Source of the DNA: Bacteroidales bacterium
GTDB taxonomy: Bacteria; Bacteroidota; Bacteroidia; Bacteroidales; ML635J-15
Length of the DNA stretch: 64,000 nucleotides
NCBI GenBank assembly: GCA_031275085.1
Contig: JAISPG010000018.1
Coordinates: 1-64,000 of the forward strand
Direction: 5' to 3'
Shown here: positions 16,355 to 23,193 of the stretch, one piece after another
Layout of the letters: every line of letters begins with the position of its first letter
Numbering within the stretch: position 1 is the first letter of the stretch
Notes under the pieces: model-generated
What the model saw: the letters and a program-made list of their open reading frames with translations, nothing else
The model's database searches: none
What the model was told of the DNA's origin: nothing
Made by a program: the position numbers and the translations under genes

Positions 16355-16383
16355 ATTCAAAATACGCAATTAGTATTTTGAAT
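16355..16383. promoter_or_regulatory. 11-bp dyad, possible operator of the peptide cluster
   Basis: ATTCAAAATAC (16355-16365) and GTATTTTGAAT (16373-16383) are perfect inverted copies separated by 7 bases. An additional half-site TATTTTGAA occurs at 16331-16339. It lies about 180 bases before the peptide gene and is not followed by a T run, so an operator is more likely than a terminator. The binding protein is unknown. Confidence 0.5.
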
Positions 16384-16561
16384 GATTTTTTTGATATAAT
16401 TTACTATTGGTTAATTTATTATGTAAATATTTTATTTTTAATTATGGTTTTGTTATATTGCGTGAGTTATGGGTAGTGGTAATTTGACGGACATGAAAGT
16501 AAAAGGCGTATCCTGAAAAGCCTATTCAATAGAGTAAGGGTAATCAAAAAAACAAAACATT

Positions 16562-16654
16562 ATGTTAACAGAAGTTTTTGAAGTAAACGAAATGTCTTGT
16601 AATGCAGGTTGTTGTGATTGTTTCTCAATGACATGTTCATGTGATTGCAGGTAA
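16562..16654 (+). CDS. Short Cys-rich peptide, candidate RiPP precursor
   Basis: This 30-residue ORF begins MLTEVFEVNEMS and ends with CNAGCCDCFSMTCSCDCR. All seven cysteines (13, 17, 18, 20, 25, 27, 29) fall in the last 18 residues, after an acidic Cys-free leader of 12. There is no Gly-Gly cleavage site and no signal peptide. It is the only ATG in its open frame; the frame is closed upstream at 16541. A strong hairpin and then two radical SAM/SPASM genes follow, the typical layout of a modified-peptide precursor and its maturases. I infer thioether or other modification of the Cys-rich core. It matches no precursor family I know well. A metal-binding peptide that is not modified is the main alternative. 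Confidence 0.7.
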   Translation: MLTEVFEVNEMSCNAGCCDCFSMTCSCDCR

Positions 16655-16657
16655 GTT

Positions 16658-16692
16658 TATGTAGCTCTCTTAAAAGGAGAGCTACATATTTT
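16658..16692 (+). terminator. Hairpin between peptide gene and maturases (attenuator)
   Basis: A perfect 12-bp stem, TATGTAGCTCTC (16658-16669) with GAGAGCTACATA (16677-16688), has a 7-base loop and a short TTTT after it. It starts 3 bases after the peptide stop. The U tract is weak, so partial termination is likely. It could keep peptide mRNA above maturase mRNA, as is common in RiPP operons. Confidence 0.7.
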
Positions 16693-16729
16693 AAAAAATT
16701 AAAATTATTAAAAGAGCAAAAATACAATA

Positions 16730-18076
16730 ATGAAATATCCTTTTTTAGAAAAACGCAATATTTTTGTGATTCCAGTAGGCGATTATTTTTCAAACTCTCC
16801 AGAGGCTTGTTTTTTGGTTTATTCTCCATTAGGAAATATTTTCTTTTTAGCATTACCATCGCAAGTGGAAAAATTAGAAACTCAAGCAATGTATAATGAA
16901 ACAGATAAACTTCTTGATGTTTTAAGTAATTATTCTCCTTTAGAAGAAAGAAATCCATATGGAGTAAGTTATGATGCTACTTCTACATTTTATATACTTT
17001 TGAATGAAAAATGCAATTTTCATTGTAAATATTGTTATTCGGCAGAAGGTCGTTCTAATGAAGAACTATCAATAGAACAAATCTATACAGCTCTTAAATA
17101 TTTCCTGTCAAGTGAAAGAAATGCACCAAAAACAAAAACGATAATGTTTATGGGCGGGGGCGAGCCGACACTTTCCTGGCATTTAGTAGAACAAGCAACG
17201 TTATTTGCAGAAAAACAAGCACTTGAAAACAATATTATATTAAAGAAACAATTGAGTACTAACGGTTCTGTATTAACGCAGCAAATGCTTGATTTTTATA
17301 AATCACATAATTTCGAGTTACAATTTTCTTTTGATGTAATACCTGAAGTTCAAAATGAACAAAGGGGACAGTTTGACAAAGTTTCGACTAATCTAAAACG
17401 ATTGGGAGAAGAAGGGGTGAAATGCAGAATACGTTCGACCGTCACTAATTTGAATGTAGAAAGAATGATGGAAATGGTTGAATTGTGTCATGGAGAATAT
17501 CCGAATGTAAAACATTTAACATGTGAACATGTAGTAGATCCTGATTTCTTTTCAACTACAGAAATAGTAACAAATTTTTATAATCAATATTTTGATTCAT
17601 TTATTGAAGCACGAACATCAGCCGATAAATATAACATTGAATTATTTTCGACATCATCAGGGACAATAAGAGCATTACGCGATAGATTTTGTTTTAACTT
17701 ATATTGTATTACTCCTTATGGAAGTTTGACTACTTGCCCAAACATATCTTCTCCAAATGAAAAAGGCTATGAAGATGCTGTTTTCGGACAAGTAAATAAT
17801 AACGAGATTGTTTTTAACGACAAATCGTACAAAAGACTAACAGATGGCAATATATCAACATATCCTGACTGTAAAGAATGTTGGGCTAAGTGGAATTGTG
17901 GAGGTGGTTGCCCTAATCAACGCCGTGTTTACGAGCCTCATATTTTTAACGAAATCTGTGTTTTTATGAAACGCATGTTACGACACAATCTAATACACGA
18001 ATTGGCCGAAAAACATAAAAAGACGACAGGTAAAAATTTCTTTGAAGATATTACCAATACTTTAAAAAAACAATAA
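16730..18076 (+). CDS. Radical SAM/SPASM peptide maturase 1
   Basis: This 448-residue enzyme has three parts. An N-terminal domain (1-90) contains the stretch FLVYSPLGNIFFLAL. The radical SAM core has C95-x3-C99-x2-C102 (CNFHCKYC), which binds the catalytic 4Fe-4S cluster, and GGGEP near residue 145 for SAM binding. The C-terminal SPASM region has C381-x2-C384-x5-C390-x3-C394 for auxiliary clusters. SPASM enzymes of this type form thioether or carbon-carbon links in peptides. The N-terminal part could bind the leader, by analogy with RRE domains, but this is inferred. It lies 75 bases after the Cys-rich peptide gene and overlaps the next maturase by 1 base. Confidence 0.88.
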   Translation: MKYPFLEKRNIFVIPVGDYFSNSPEACFLVYSPLGNIFFLALPSQVEKLETQAMYNETDKLLDVLSNYSPLEERNPYGVSYDATSTFYILLNEKCNFHCKYCYSAEGRSNEELSIEQIYTALKYFLSSERNAPKTKTIMFMGGGEPTLSWHLVEQATLFAEKQALENNIILKKQLSTNGSVLTQQMLDFYKSHNFELQFSFDVIPEVQNEQRGQFDKVSTNLKRLGEEGVKCRIRSTVTNLNVERMMEMVELCHGEYPNVKHLTCEHVVDPDFFSTTEIVTNFYNQYFDSFIEARTSADKYNIELFSTSSGTIRALRDRFCFNLYCITPYGSLTTCPNISSPNEKGYEDAVFGQVNNNEIVFNDKSYKRLTDGNISTYPDCKECWAKWNCGGGCPNQRRVYEPHIFNEICVFMKRMLRHNLIHELAEKHKKTTGKNFFEDITNTLKKQ

Positions 18077-19443
18077 TGGATTTTAATTTACTTTTTGAGA
18101 ATAATATATATACAATACCGGCAGGCGACATATGGAATGTTGCAAAAAATCGGCTATATTTTGTTTACTCACCTTTGAGTGGACATATTTTACTTGTAAG
18201 CCATGAAGAACTCATAAATATAGAAAATATATGTCGGGGAAAATGTGTTGGGACTGAAGTGCAAAATAATTTACTGAGGCTATTGAAAGGGCAGCAAAAT
18301 CAATATATATTTGAAATACCAAACTCTTCAGATGATGTTTATGAAATAGATATATTGTCTAATTTTAAATGTAATTTTAACTGTTCATATTGTTATTCTG
18401 CAGCGGGTCGTTCCTCGAAAGAAGTTGATTTCGAAAATATTGAAGTTATTATTGATTACTTATTTTTTTCGGGACATCCTCAAAAAAGACCGTATAAAAT
18501 AAATTTTTCGGGAGGAGGAGAACCTTTGTTGAGTTTTCCATTGATAAAAAAAACAATTGATTATATTGATGAAAAAGCAAAAGAAACTTCTTATCGGTAT
18601 AGTTATGGACTGGTAACAAATGGCAGCTTATTGAACTCTGATATTATAGATTATATCAAGGAGAAAAAAATCAATCTTGTTGTGTCATTTGAAGTATTAC
18701 AGGAACTTCAGGATTTGGAACGTGGAAATTATCATAGCGTTGCCAGCAACATCGATTTGTTACTTCAAAAAGATTGTCCTTTTGGTATCAGGGCAACTAT
18801 TACTCCCGAAAGCGTTCCTAAAATGGGATTAATGGTAAAGGAATTAGCTACCCGTTTTCCTAAACTTGGGGCAATTGTTTTTGATACAGTCTTATCTGCT
18901 GATATATTCAGAACGCCAAAGCAATTAAACAATTATTATGATCAATATTCATTTGAGTATTGGTCTGCAAAAAAATTAGGTAAAGAAATTGGTGTGAAAG
19001 TATTATGCAATTCGATGGAGCCAACGAGCATATTACGAACTCGTACTTGCCAGGGTAAAATAGTACTTACTCCCGATGGGGCAATATCTTCTTGTGCACG
19101 GGTTTCTTCCCCACAGGAGGATTTGTATGATAAGTTTATATATGGAGAAATTAAAAATAGAAAATTAGAGATAGATGAAATAAAGTTTTCTAATATAATG
19201 TCGGAAAACAATATTAATAACCGCAAAGAATGTCAAGAGTGCTATGCCCGTTGGAATTGTGGAGGAGGATGTTGGTTGTTTTCGCAATCTTTTTCAAATG
19301 AATTCGAAGAACCATTTTGCAACTTCACAAGAAAAGCTCTGAAAAAAAATCTTTATGAAATTCTCAATGAAAGACATAATGCAGCAAAAAAAGAAAGTTT
19401 ATGGGATTCTATAAATGCACAAATACAAGCAAAAAATATATAA
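18076..19443 (+). CDS. Radical SAM/SPASM peptide maturase 2
   Basis: This 455-residue paralog of the preceding enzyme has the same layout. Its N-terminal domain contains FVYSPLSGHILLVS. The radical SAM motif is C99-x3-C103-x2-C106 (CNFNCSYC), followed by SGGGEP, and the SPASM cysteines are C386-x2-C389-x5-C395-x3-C399. The shared N-terminal domain and the identical Cys spacing show an old duplication, but the sequences are clearly diverged, so they probably catalyse different steps or act as a pair on one substrate. The start ATG overlaps the stop of maturase 1 (TAATG), indicating translational coupling. I expect it to act in the cytoplasm on the upstream Cys-rich peptide. Confidence 0.87.
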   Translation: MDFNLLFENNIYTIPAGDIWNVAKNRLYFVYSPLSGHILLVSHEELINIENICRGKCVGTEVQNNLLRLLKGQQNQYIFEIPNSSDDVYEIDILSNFKCNFNCSYCYSAAGRSSKEVDFENIEVIIDYLFFSGHPQKRPYKINFSGGGEPLLSFPLIKKTIDYIDEKAKETSYRYSYGLVTNGSLLNSDIIDYIKEKKINLVVSFEVLQELQDLERGNYHSVASNIDLLLQKDCPFGIRATITPESVPKMGLMVKELATRFPKLGAIVFDTVLSADIFRTPKQLNNYYDQYSFEYWSAKKLGKEIGVKVLCNSMEPTSILRTRTCQGKIVLTPDGAISSCARVSSPQEDLYDKFIYGEIKNRKLEIDEIKFSNIMSENNINNRKECQECYARWNCGGGCWLFSQSFSNEFEEPFCNFTRKALKKNLYEILNERHNAAKKESLWDSINAQIQAKNI

Positions 19444-19494
19444 TAAATTTTTAATGTATATAGTATTTTTGTTCAGATAACGTAATTTATATAT

Positions 19495-20829
19495 ATGACC
19501 AAATTGAATATTTTACTTGTAATTCCACGTTATGAAACATACGGAGGAAATGGAAAATATGTGATGCCATTAGGTATCTTATATGTCTCGTCTTACCTCA
19601 AAAAATCAAATATTGCAAATGTATATACATTGAATATGAACCACCACGAAGGTTCGGAAGAAGAAATATTAAAATATTATTTTAAAACATTCAATATTCA
19701 AATATTGGGAATTGGCGGACTTTCAGGAGAATTTGCTGATATTAACAGAATTGCACGACTAACAAAAACAATAAATTCGCAGATAAAAATAATTGTTGGT
19801 GGTGGTGTTATCACTGCAGATGCAGAGACAGCGATGCAAGCTTTCGGGATTGCAGATTTTGGAGTGATTGGAGAAGGAGAAATAACCATTATTGAGTTAT
19901 TGAAAGCTATAAACAATGAAGTTCCGATTGAAGAAATTTCAGGATTAATTTTTTTAAAGAATGGAAATTTTATAAAGACAGAAGCAAGAAAAGAAATAGA
20001 AAACCTTGACATACTTCCTTTTCCTGATTACGAAGGGTTTAATTACAAAGAATATCTTGAAACAAATCCCGATATGAGTGATGAAGGGAAAAAATATACT
20101 CAAGTATCAATAATCGGTGGACGTTCCTGTAAATATAATTGTACATTTTGTTTTCATCCATCTGGTAGTACATATCGTCAGCGTTCTTTAGATTCTATTT
20201 TTAAAGAAATTGATTATCTAACATCAAATTATGAAATTTCTTATATTGCTCTAAGAGAAGAACTATTTGCAACAGATAATCAACGGGTAATCGAATTTTG
20301 TAATCGGATATGCCATTATGATTTCGACTGGTCAATTCAGCTCCGGGTTGATAGTATTAATTCCGAATTAGTTGACATTTTAAGAAATACTAGATGCAGG
20401 TATGTTTTTGTTGGCATAGAAAGCGCTCATGACACAGTTTTGAAAAGTATGAGGAAAGGAATAAATTTGCAACAAATTGAGTACGCCCTAAATCTTTTAT
20501 CAGAAGCTGGATTAAATAGCCGCTCAGGAATTATATTTGGAGATAAAGCAGAAACATTTGAGACTGTGATGTGGACATATAATTGGTATAAAAATAACAA
20601 ATCAAATTACCGTATGTTTCTTGATATGATTATTGCATTCCCTGGTTCTAAACTCTATATTGATGCTTGTCAAAATGGAATTATTCCCGACACAGTTCAA
20701 TTTTTAAAAGATGGTTGCCCTATTGTAAATACTTCCAGACTTAATGATGTCGAATTTGATAAATTGATAAAACTGGTCGAGAAAGAAAACCATAGAACAT
20801 ATACAGTTAAGAAGTACATTAATAACTGA
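19495..20829 (+). CDS. Cobalamin-dependent-type radical SAM enzyme
   Basis: This 444-residue protein belongs to the B12-binding-domain radical SAM class. Residues 1-140 form a Rossmann-like cobalamin domain (LNILLVIPRYETYGG, then GGGVITADAE and GEGEITIIELLKA). It lacks the DxHxxG motif, which is usual for this class. The radical SAM motif is C212-x3-C216-x2-C219 (CKYNCTFC). Such enzymes methylate unactivated carbons or catalyse ring formation. In this context C-methylation of a peptide is likely, but other reactions cannot be excluded from the sequence. It starts 51 bases after maturase 2 and ends 8 bases before the next radical SAM gene. Confidence 0.85.
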   Translation: MTKLNILLVIPRYETYGGNGKYVMPLGILYVSSYLKKSNIANVYTLNMNHHEGSEEEILKYYFKTFNIQILGIGGLSGEFADINRIARLTKTINSQIKIIVGGGVITADAETAMQAFGIADFGVIGEGEITIIELLKAINNEVPIEEISGLIFLKNGNFIKTEARKEIENLDILPFPDYEGFNYKEYLETNPDMSDEGKKYTQVSIIGGRSCKYNCTFCFHPSGSTYRQRSLDSIFKEIDYLTSNYEISYIALREELFATDNQRVIEFCNRICHYDFDWSIQLRVDSINSELVDILRNTRCRYVFVGIESAHDTVLKSMRKGINLQQIEYALNLLSEAGLNSRSGIIFGDKAETFETVMWTYNWYKNNKSNYRMFLDMIIAFPGSKLYIDACQNGIIPDTVQFLKDGCPIVNTSRLNDVEFDKLIKLVEKENHRTYTVKKYINN

Positions 20830-20837
20830 TTTATTGT

Positions 20838-22190
20838 ATGCGTTACATTTTAAAGGATAATTATATATTACGAGGTTGGATTGACAATCCATTCGGTGTT
20901 GTGGATATAAATACCGGGAAAAAATATTTTTTCACTTGTTCCGAATATGATGTTTTATTACATTGTAATGGAGAGAATTACATTAACAATGATAGCTATA
21001 TAAAACAATTATATGCAAGAGGGTTTGTTGGAATTGCTGATTCTAATAAAACGATAACAGAGTATCAAATGTATAAATCATATAAGTGTAATAATTATCA
21101 AACAGCAGAAATCGTACTTACCAATACATGTAATTATAAATGCCGTCATTGTTATATCTCAACTCCAAATGTAAAGAAGAAAGAATTATCTACAGGCGAA
21201 TGGTTTAATGTAATTAATCAACTTGTTGAGACAGGAATATTTCAAGTTGAATTAACGGGGGGAGAATGTCTTTTGAGGAAAGATTTTTTTCAAATAATAG
21301 ATCAATTAATACAATGTAATATTAGTATTGTAGCCATTCTTTCAAACGGATCGTTTATTTCAAGCAAGATTCTTTATGAATTTGAAAAGCGAGGTATAAA
21401 ACCTGCTTTTCAGATAAGTTTCGATGGAACAGAAGGCAATCATAATTGGTTAAGAAATTCATTAGATGCTGAAAAAAAAACTATTCGGAGCATTAAGTTA
21501 TTAAGAAAATATGGATTCTCTGTATTTGTAACAATGACAATGCATAAAGGCAATAAAGATTCATTACGTGAAACCGTATTATTATTGGGGAAACTGGACA
21601 TTGAACAACTTTATGTCGGCTATGTAACAGAAATGGGAGAATGGCTTAATCAAAATAAAACTTATAGAATGAACAGTAGTGAATATTATGATAGTTTTCT
21701 CGAATACATTCCATATTATAAAACAGATAAAATGCCTGTAAATATTCAACTTGGAGGAATATTTAAATATATGAGACATTCCGGAAAATATAATATTCCT
21801 ATGAAATTAAATAAAGGAGAGATAATGGGCAGAAAGAATGTTTGCAATATTTCTGCAGGAAAAATATATATAACAGCTAATGGTTCAGTATTACCTTGTC
21901 CTATATTTACAGGAACGGAAGTTGGCAAAAATATGCCTAATGTTTTTTCTATTTCTTTAAATGAGATTTTGACTGATTCTAATTATTTACAACAAGCAAA
22001 ATGCACTTATGACGATTTGAAAGAAGGGCAAACTCAATGTTATAAATGTTCGTTTCTTTACGAATGCGGAGGAAAATGTCATGTCGGAAATTGGCAGAAT
22101 GAACGTCAGTTTCTCATTGAGAAAGAAATGTCCTGCTCCTTTTTTAAAGGAGGATATGAAACTAAGATACAACAGGCTTGGGAAATGTAA
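20838..22190 (+). CDS. Radical SAM/SPASM maturase 3
   Basis: This 450-residue SPASM enzyme differs from maturases 1 and 2. Its N-terminal part (1-90) contains DNPFGVVDINTGKKYFF and a winged-helix-like stretch. The cluster motif is C98-x3-C102-x2-C105 (CNYKCRHC), followed by ELTGGECLLRKDF. The C-terminal cysteines are C401-x2-C404-x5-C410-x3-C414. The GGE-C-LLRKDF form of the SAM motif resembles PqqE/heme-d1-type (Nir) and other peptide-tailoring enzymes. It starts 8 bases after the cobalamin-type gene, in the same operon. Four radical SAM enzymes for one peptide suggest several modification types. Confidence 0.85.
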   Translation: MRYILKDNYILRGWIDNPFGVVDINTGKKYFFTCSEYDVLLHCNGENYINNDSYIKQLYARGFVGIADSNKTITEYQMYKSYKCNNYQTAEIVLTNTCNYKCRHCYISTPNVKKKELSTGEWFNVINQLVETGIFQVELTGGECLLRKDFFQIIDQLIQCNISIVAILSNGSFISSKILYEFEKRGIKPAFQISFDGTEGNHNWLRNSLDAEKKTIRSIKLLRKYGFSVFVTMTMHKGNKDSLRETVLLLGKLDIEQLYVGYVTEMGEWLNQNKTYRMNSSEYYDSFLEYIPYYKTDKMPVNIQLGGIFKYMRHSGKYNIPMKLNKGEIMGRKNVCNISAGKIYITANGSVLPCPIFTGTEVGKNMPNVFSISLNEILTDSNYLQQAKCTYDDLKEGQTQCYKCSFLYECGGKCHVGNWQNERQFLIEKEMSCSFFKGGYETKIQQAWEM

Positions 22191-22306
22191 TTTAATATTA
22201 AATTTTATGAAGAAATAAATATTTGATAAAAATGCGGAAGATAATTTGAAATCTTTATTTAGCATTTCTTCTTATTTGTAACAGTTGGAAATATTTTAGA
22301 TTAGAT

Positions 22307-22363
22307 ATGAAAACAGTTGGGTTTGGTAATATTTATGGAACTTTCATGCCAGGGATAAATTAG
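22307..22363 (+). CDS. 18-codon ORF coupled to the formyltransferase gene
   Basis: A small ORF beginning MKTVGFGNIYG and ending FMPGIN stops at TAG (22361-22363), whose last base is the first base of the GTG start of the formyltransferase. This arrangement is typical of translational coupling. The peptide has no Cys. It could be a leader that couples translation, a second small peptide product, or chance. It lies 116 bases after maturase 3. Confidence 0.35.
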   Translation: MKTVGFGNIYGTFMPGIN

Positions 22364-23193
22364 TGGAAAAGAAAAGTGTAATAATTATAACGAATGGATA
22401 TTCTTCATTTATCTCCAATCTTCATACAGCCAGGATTGTGGAGATAATTGGCGTATTAGATTGTGCTGGAGATAAAAAACTTGAAAATTATGTACATGGA
22501 AAAAATATTCCATATAAAACATTAATCCAACAAGATAAAGAATTACAAAAATGGATTAAAGAAAAAAACGTTTCTCTTATCATTGTTTATAAAATGCCTT
22601 TCTTATTAAAAAAAGAGGTTTATTCTATTCCAAAATATGGCTCGATAAATATCCACCCGTCATTATTGCCTCAATACCGTGGACCTAATCCTTGGTTTTG
22701 GATTTATTTCAATATGGAAAAAGAAAGTGGTGTGACAATTCATAGAATTGATGAAAGGGAAGATCACGGAGAAGTTCTTGCTCAAACGAAATTTGATATT
22801 AAATTGGGTGTTAATTTAAAAGAATTACAATCTATAGTAGAAATAAAGAGTATTTTCTTATTAAAAGAATTATTGCCTAAAATAGAAACAATAAAAGGGA
22901 AGTCTCAAGATTCTTATTTTTCAAGTTTTAAAGCATATAATGTTGCTAATTATAAATTAATAATTGATATTAATAAGATTGACGTTGCCAATCTATGGCA
23001 CTTATTAAGAGGTTTTCCTTGGCTTATACCAATATTATATTCCAACTTTAAACATAAAGGAAAATATAAGATAAAAAGTTATGTAAATAATATCTTTGAA
23101 AATGAAAATATTGGAAATGTAAAAGAAGATGAATCAAATATATTTTTATATTGCAAAAATGGCATTATTGAAGTTCAAAAATATAGGAAATGA
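22363..23193 (+). CDS. Formyltransferase-like enzyme of the peptide cluster
   Basis: This 276-residue protein matches the formyltransferase N-domain family (methionyl-tRNA formyltransferase, GART, UDP-formyltransferases). The catalytic triad is visible: N96 and H98 in NIHPSLLPQYRG, and D134 in EDHGE, 36 residues apart, the spacing of E. coli Fmt. The C-terminal part is short. It is unlikely to be the housekeeping Fmt, because it lacks a recognisable tRNA-binding C-domain and lies at the end of the radical SAM operon. I infer formylation of an amine or hydroxylamine in the peptide product, from 10-formyl-tetrahydrofolate. The GTG start is supported by the overlap with the preceding small ORF, and AGGGA lies about 9 bases upstream. 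Confidence 0.75.
   Translation: MEKKSVIIITNGYSSFISNLHTARIVEIIGVLDCAGDKKLENYVHGKNIPYKTLIQQDKELQKWIKEKNVSLIIVYKMPFLLKKEVYSIPKYGSINIHPSLLPQYRGPNPWFWIYFNMEKESGVTIHRIDEREDHGEVLAQTKFDIKLGVNLKELQSIVEIKSIFLLKELLPKIETIKGKSQDSYFSSFKAYNVANYKLIIDINKIDVANLWHLLRGFPWLIPILYSNFKHKGKYKIKSYVNNIFENENIGNVKEDESNIFLYCKNGIIEVQKYRK

What the first reader, a model, noticed from the sequence alone, without database searches (positions are those of the whole stretch)
16355..23193. Probable new RiPP-like cluster: Cys-rich peptide, four radical SAM enzymes and a formyltransferase
Seen: a 30-residue peptide with seven Cys in its last 18 residues, then three SPASM enzymes and a cobalamin-type radical SAM enzyme, all with intact cluster cysteines, and a formyltransferase homologue with the N/H/D triad. 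All are on one strand, with overlaps or short gaps, and a terminator precedes the block. Known: SPASM enzymes adjacent to short Cys-rich peptides make thioether or C-C links, and B12 radical SAM enzymes methylate carbons. Inference: a peptide with several modification types, perhaps crosslinked, C-methylated and formylated. I do not recognise this gene combination as a named class. A metal-binding or signalling role is possible.
Basis: partly seen in the sequence, partly recalled or inferred. Interest (0 to 1): 0.92.

Follow-up and report, generated by a model that had tools for sequence, protein, structure and literature searches.

The report
New Cys-rich modified-peptide gene cluster
A tiny cysteine-rich peptide gene in a Bacteroidales genome sits in front of radical enzymes and a formyl-transferring enzyme, and the same set recurs in about a dozen distant relatives, one of them on a phage-like contig, so it is probably an undescribed class of modified peptide.

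Summary
A 30-aa peptide with 7 Cys (16562-16654) is followed on one strand by three SPASM radical SAM enzymes, a B12-type radical SAM enzyme and a formyltransferase. I compared 16 clusters (window plus 15); 15 have a homologous peptide and the 16th contig starts too late. The peptides share CCD-x4/5-C-x-C and are under purifying selection. All 14 compared clusters with the B12 enzyme have the formyltransferase, its N/H/D triad intact; in one locus the two are one protein. Ten of the 13 B12-type relatives also carry an M42 peptidase; none was found in the window genome. I found no description in the held library. Best reading: an undescribed RiPP class, thioether-crosslinked, probably C-methylated and N-formyl-capped. 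The chemistry is inferred, not shown; the product's role is unknown.

The parts
16503..16540 (+). DUF805b-like 5' UTR RNA element with a possible pseudoknot (loop triplet before GAAAA pairs with the triplet after AGAGUA)
   Evidence: RF02914 33.6 bits, just under the 35.6 gathering score; above it in 10 relatives; pseudoknot pairing
16562..16654 (+). precursor peptide gene, 30 aa, 7 Cys; motif CCD-x5-C-x-C
   Evidence: homologues in 14 other clusters; purifying selection
16658..16688 (+). stable hairpin between peptide and first enzyme gene, probable attenuator or mRNA stabiliser (inference)
   Evidence: -19.6 kcal/mol, z -5.7; the 70 nt after the peptide stop fold stably in 15 of 15 clusters
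16730..18076 (+). S1, SPASM radical SAM peptide maturase with an N-terminal domain
18076..19443 (+). S2, SPASM radical SAM peptide maturase, paralogue of S1 (29% identity)
19495..20829 (+). B12-binding radical SAM enzyme, probable C-methyltransferase (inference)
   Evidence: PF02310 and PF04055; 50-65% identity in 13 other clusters
20838..22190 (+). S3, third SPASM radical SAM enzyme; no close counterpart in the loci held
   Evidence: PF13186 and PF04055; only 21-26% to enzymes of other clusters
22363..23193 (+). 10-formyl-THF formyltransferase homologue with an Fmt-like C-terminal domain

Best explanation
This is a RiPP biosynthetic operon of an undescribed class. The RNA element at 16503-16540 lies in the leader of the message; a 30-aa precursor is translated in excess and a hairpin limits read-through into the enzymes. 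S1 and S2 (and S3 here) bind the short leader and link Cys sulfur to carbons of the core, the invariant Asp of CCD being the most likely acceptor. The B12 enzyme then probably methylates a carbon. After the leader is trimmed (M42 peptidase in most relatives, some other peptidase here), the formyltransferase caps the new N-terminus; the window peptide has no Lys, so its N-terminus is its only ordinary amine. SHOWN: gene content, order, conservation, selection, fold classes, RNA layout. INFERRED: every chemical step, their order, the cap and the roles of the RNA parts. Function: most likely a fixed-structure secreted or metal-binding signal rather than a fast-diversifying toxin. About 0.95 that it is a RiPP operon; about 0.45 that thioether, methyl and formyl all occur on the peptide.
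For: A homologous peptide beside the enzymes in 15 of 16 clusters, the 16th contig truncated. The core GCCDVFGYGC[TS]CACNNS is identical but for T/S in 8 relatives (L015-L021, L066), while S1 of L015-L022 is only 56-83% identical in pairs (that set has L022 and not L066). Uncorrected pN/pS 0.18 among nine relatives. The S1 model is nearest to 5why/5wgg, titled a study of thioether bond formation, over residues 8-426 (that this enzyme is CteB is recalled; the N-terminal part rests on few rows). S1 and S2 score best against the PapB model, and PapB joins Cys to Asp or Glu with spacings of 0-6 (PMC9413430, abstract). The formyltransferase is in 14 of 14 compared B12-positive clusters and fused to the B12 enzyme in L067. 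M42 in 10 of 14. Linear gramicidin synthase, which formylates its first residue (recalled), is among the PDB relatives of the formyltransferase.
Against: No mass-spectrometric or expression data. S1 and S2 fall far below the curated PapB cut-off (115.8 and 127.5 against 340), so the crosslink type is open. The formyltransferase substrate could be something else. The window, L020, L068 and L069 lack M42. The type C clusters (L023, L024) have the peptide but no B12 enzyme, formyltransferase, M42 or DUF805b in the stretch read. The window peptide is only 53-63% identical to the nine other type A peptides and lacks their C-terminal end. The clusters are rare: in 393 order genomes and 395 phylum genomes only the window's own had a type A-like hit.
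Confidence: 0.62

Rival explanations
1. Metallophore or metal-buffering peptide: the enzymes fix the backbone so that the CCD and CxC thiols bind copper, zinc or nickel; formyl and methyl groups protect or tune the ligand set.
For: Invariant Cys-Cys-Asp and Cys-x-Cys in 15 of 15 peptides; nearly constant core in 8 relatives.
Against: No metal transporter or metal regulator among the three window flanking genes scanned or the neighbours annotated; neighbours were not searched systematically.
Confidence: 0.25
2. Weapon or conflict system (bacteriocin, exclusion or defence), including as cargo of temperate phages.
For: One cluster lies among phage genes; patchy distribution (1 of 31, 2 of 399, 4 of 249 genomes, starting genomes included); the kinase part fused to the L066 formyltransferase matches the PADLOC model STK_OB (4e-26) and the L067 membrane protein weakly matches a 2TM effector model (0.0043).
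Against: The core hardly varies between hosts, unlike most toxins (general knowledge); the window cluster itself has no kinase, membrane or transporter gene.
Confidence: 0.25
3. Precursor of a small peptide-derived redox cofactor, of the PQQ or mycofactocin kind: the peptide is trimmed to a few residues by the M42 peptidase.
For: M42 peptidase in 10 of 14 clusters, near-constant core.
Against: No user enzyme recognised among the neighbours annotated, which were not searched systematically; 5-7 Cys would be unusual for such a cofactor.
Confidence: 0.1
4. The formyltransferase does not act on the peptide but on another metabolite (for example a sugar), or is a spare Met-tRNA formyltransferase that merely travels with the cluster.
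For: Best PDB sequence matches are sugar N-formyltransferases; the window model covers both domains of Fmt.
Against: Present in 14 of 14 compared B12-positive clusters, in most as a short single-domain form, fused to the B12 enzyme in L067; window score 100.2 against the Fmt cut-off of 201.5; no sugar gene among the window genes scanned. Whether the genome has another fmt gene was not searched.
Confidence: 0.2
5. The peptide ORF is a chance reading frame.
For: It is short and matches no family in the libraries searched.
Against: Conserved in sequence, place and flanking RNA features in 15 clusters, with pN/pS 0.18 among nine relatives.
Confidence: 0.01

Closest known systems
Ranthipeptides / SCIFF peptides with CteB-like or PapB-like SPASM maturases
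   Same: Cys-rich short precursor beside SPASM enzymes; S1 fold closest to 5why/5wgg (CteB by recall); PapB model is the best NCBIfam match.
   Different: Two to six SPASM enzymes per peptide, plus B12 enzyme and formyltransferase in 14 of 16 clusters and M42 in 10; scores far below the family cut-offs; peptides of 28-35 aa with CCD-x4/5-C-x-C rather than six Cys in forty-five residues (SCIFF wording from passages of PMC8326336).
RiPP C-methyltransferases of the B12 radical SAM superfamily (TIGR03975, ApyD NF050148)
   Same: B12-binding plus radical SAM domains, RiPP context.
   Different: 92.4 and 109.6 bits against cut-offs of 281.85 and 750; HpnJ and PhpK models score higher (140.7, 131.0), also below cut-off.
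Fmt / ArnA / sugar N-formyltransferases and linear gramicidin synthase subunit A
   Same: 10-formyl-THF fold, NIHPSLLP motif, N/H/D triad.
   Different: Most cluster members are single-domain; others are fused to B12, kinase-like or membrane parts; shared G-x-[ND]-P motif after SLLP.
DUF805b RNA (RF02914)
   Same: Hairpin, GAAAA and AGAGUA boxes.
   Different: The window copy is below the gathering score; a second, pseudoknot-type pairing that the structure line of the model does not show.

Membership tests
RiPP cluster | short precursor peptide gene next to modifying enzymes, conserved together | tested here: met
   15 of 15 clusters with readable upstream DNA
RiPP cluster | precursor is in fact modified | not testable with these tools
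   needs expression and mass spectrometry
SPASM radical SAM enzymes | CxxxCxxC plus seven-Cys SPASM pattern | tested here: met
   invariant in 9 of 9 rows for S1 and for S2; S3 above the Pfam SPASM cut-off; S1 and S2 give no Pfam SPASM match
PapB family (NF047865) | score above the curated cut-off of 340 bits | tested here: not met
   S1 115.8, S2 127.5, S3 53.4 bits
SCIFF system (TIGR03974) | maturase above 425 bits; six Cys in forty-five residues | tested here: not met
   S1 75.9, S2 96.2 bits; 15 peptides of 28-35 aa with 5-7 Cys
Ranthipeptide | non-alpha-carbon thioether bridge | not testable with these tools
   chemistry inferred from fold and family only
B12 radical SAM enzymes | B12-binding domain and radical SAM domain | tested here: met
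   PF02310 55.0 bits and PF04055 61.3 bits, both above cut-off
B12 radical SAM C-methyltransferase | methyl transfer to carbon | not testable with these tools
   family inference
10-formyl-THF formyltransferase | fold and N/H/D triad | tested here: met
Methionyl-tRNA formyltransferase (TIGR00460) | score above 201.5 bits | tested here: not met
   100.2 bits
DUF805b RNA (RF02914) | score above the gathering threshold of 35.6 bits | tested here: inconclusive
   window 33.6 bits; above threshold in 10 relatives

The most novel reading that the evidence does not exclude
A new RiPP class with a nearly fixed product: a multiply crosslinked, C-methylated peptide whose N-terminus is capped by a formyl group from folate, made by Bacteroidales, several of them from gut and rumen samples by their record titles, and carried by at least one phage-like element, and read by partner membrane proteins or kinases that in some clusters are fused to the formyltransferase. 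Folate-dependent formylation would be a RiPP tailoring step that I did not find described.
Probability: 0.3. Interest if true: 0.85.

Novelty: new variant of a known kind. Interest (0 to 1): 0.72.

Why it matters
It defines a RiPP class by a peptide motif, an enzyme set and a 5' RNA element, so more members can be found by simple searches. It offers a compact system in which two to six related SPASM enzymes, a B12 enzyme and a formyltransferase appear to act on one peptide of about 30 residues. The fixed core and the phage-borne copy make its biological role an answerable question.

Tried and rejected

Literature searches that gave no description of this combination: (listings and starts of abstracts), with matched passages of PMC10352776 and PMC8326336 and the abstract of PMC9413430. 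The library lacks most subscription journals, so absence there is weak evidence. The paper that described DUF805b was not seen.

Full report
WHAT IS THERE. The window is part of a 3.08 Mb, 89%-complete assembly. On the + strand, 16562-16654 encodes MLTEVFEVNEMSCNAGCCDCFSMTCSCDCR, followed by S1 (16730-18076), S2 (18076-19443), a B12-binding radical SAM enzyme (19495-20829), S3 (20838-22190) and a formyltransferase (22363-23193). S1 and S2 match no Pfam SPASM model but carry the full Cys pattern in all aligned relatives; S3 passes Pfam's SPASM cut-off. None of the NCBIfam families listed for the five enzymes (best 25 each) reaches its cut-off. The window peptide, three relatives and one peptide of L025 match no NCBIfam family.

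RELATIVES. One scan of genome contigs with S1 gave 8 loci, L015-L022. Profile searches with the B12 enzyme at E 1e-120 to 1e-130 gave 1 of 104, 2 of 399, 4 of 249 and 1 of 395 genomes, each count including the starting genome, and one viral contig. S1 was found in 1 of 31 genomes of the window's family, its own. In 393 order genomes the S2 search gave, besides the window, paralogous SPASM enzymes in three genomes; two of these (L023, L024) hold related peptides; at most four candidates per genome were scored there. I compared 16 clusters. Type A (11: window, L015-L022, L066, L067): S1, S2, B12 enzyme, formyltransferase, mostly M42; S3 is extra in the window. Type B (3: L058, L068, L069): five or six SPASM enzymes with B12 enzyme and formyltransferase. 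Type C (2: L023, L024): five or six SPASM enzymes, no B12 enzyme, formyltransferase or M42 in the stretch read.

THE PEPTIDE IS REAL. Fifteen of 16 clusters have it; the L022 contig begins inside S1. Invariant residues are M1, V8, C17, C18, D19, C25 and C27 of the window peptide. In eight type A relatives (L015-L021, L066) the core is GCCDVFGYGC[TS]CACNNS, while the S1 proteins of L015-L022 are 56-83% identical in pairs. Uncorrected pN and pS are 0.139 and 0.785 among nine type A relatives (ratio 0.18), and 0.305 and 0.752 for the window against those nine. In L018 the peptide lies 1.3 kb upstream of S1 with a 379-aa gene of no known Pfam family between; in L024 it lies between the second and third SPASM genes.

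RNA FRAME. DUF805b scores above its gathering threshold before the peptide in L015-L021 (seven), L058, L067 and L068, and 33.6 bits in the window (threshold 35.6). L066 has it only by pattern search, with a changed but still complementary pseudoknot triplet. So 12 of 12 type A/B clusters with enough upstream DNA have it; L022 and L069 have too little, and L023 and L024 show none at E 0.01. The loop triplet before GAAAA can pair with the triplet after AGAGUA: the variable pair is complementary in 49 of 57 pattern matches against 27.3 expected if independent; the other two pairs hardly vary (54 against 51.2, 51 against 45.4), and relatedness was not controlled. The distance from AGAGUA to the first ATG with an ORF of 25 aa or more is 24-28 in 11 of 12 cluster peptides (64 in L066), 22-31 in 25 of 30 best-scoring other sites (one of them in the window's genome) and in 4 of 6 further sites of the window's genome. 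The 70 nt after the peptide stop fold stably in 15 of 15 clusters, z -2.3 to -7.8. Precursor, hairpin, then enzymes would give more precursor than enzyme (inference).

MECHANISM. Leader-guided thioether formation by S1/S2(/S3), probable C-methylation, trimming, and formylation of the new N-terminus. The window peptide has no Lys, so its N-terminus is the only ordinary amine. Each chemical step is inferred. The fixed core speaks for a constant partner (receptor, metal or target) rather than an arms race, but the phage-borne copy, the patchy spread and the kinase part resembling STK_OB (4e-26) allow a weapon or conflict role.

PHAGE LINK. The contig of L056 and L058 has a terminase small subunit (2.9e-5) and an integrase on one side of the cluster, and a UmuD-like protein, a terminase large subunit (1.2e-27) and a weak head-tail adaptor match (2.5e-4) on the other. 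Whether it is a complete phage was not tested.

VERDICT. Real, conserved, and not found described in the held library. It is a new class within a known kind (RiPP).

Noticed in passing
window 16503-16540; loci L015-L021, L026-L055, L058, L066-L068, L070-L077: DUF805b RNA (RF02914) matches show pairing for an H-type pseudoknot that the model's structure line does not contain, and sit at a nearly fixed distance (mostly 22-31 nt) before start codons of very different genes.
   Followed up: partly
L028, L048, L045, L055, ORF start just after the DUF805b match: Some other DUF805b sites precede short peptides with a GG-type leader, so the element may mark a wider group of peptide and secreted-protein genes in Bacteroidales.
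   Followed up: no
L058 201-21333 and L056 9967-15711: An 11.6-kb RiPP cluster with five SPASM enzymes lies between phage genes on an IMG/VR contig, together with a 643-aa membrane protein with a sub-threshold RCK match.
   Followed up: partly
L025 2670-7627: Two other Cys-rich peptide ORFs near two S1/S2-like proteins (one of them weak) and an M42 peptidase; M42 may be a recurrent partner of such clusters.
   Followed up: no
L067 6825-7727, L069 9481-10317, L066 8043-8942, L016 14575-15432, L018 7843-8982: Probable membrane proteins beside or fused to the formyltransferase, or (L018) beside the peptide; L067 and L069 are homologous (33%), the others at best possibly. Role unknown.
   Followed up: partly
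L015 1-6944: Contig labelled Lachnospiraceae carries a type A cluster with DUF805b like those of Bacteroidales; transfer or mis-binning, not resolved.
   Followed up: no
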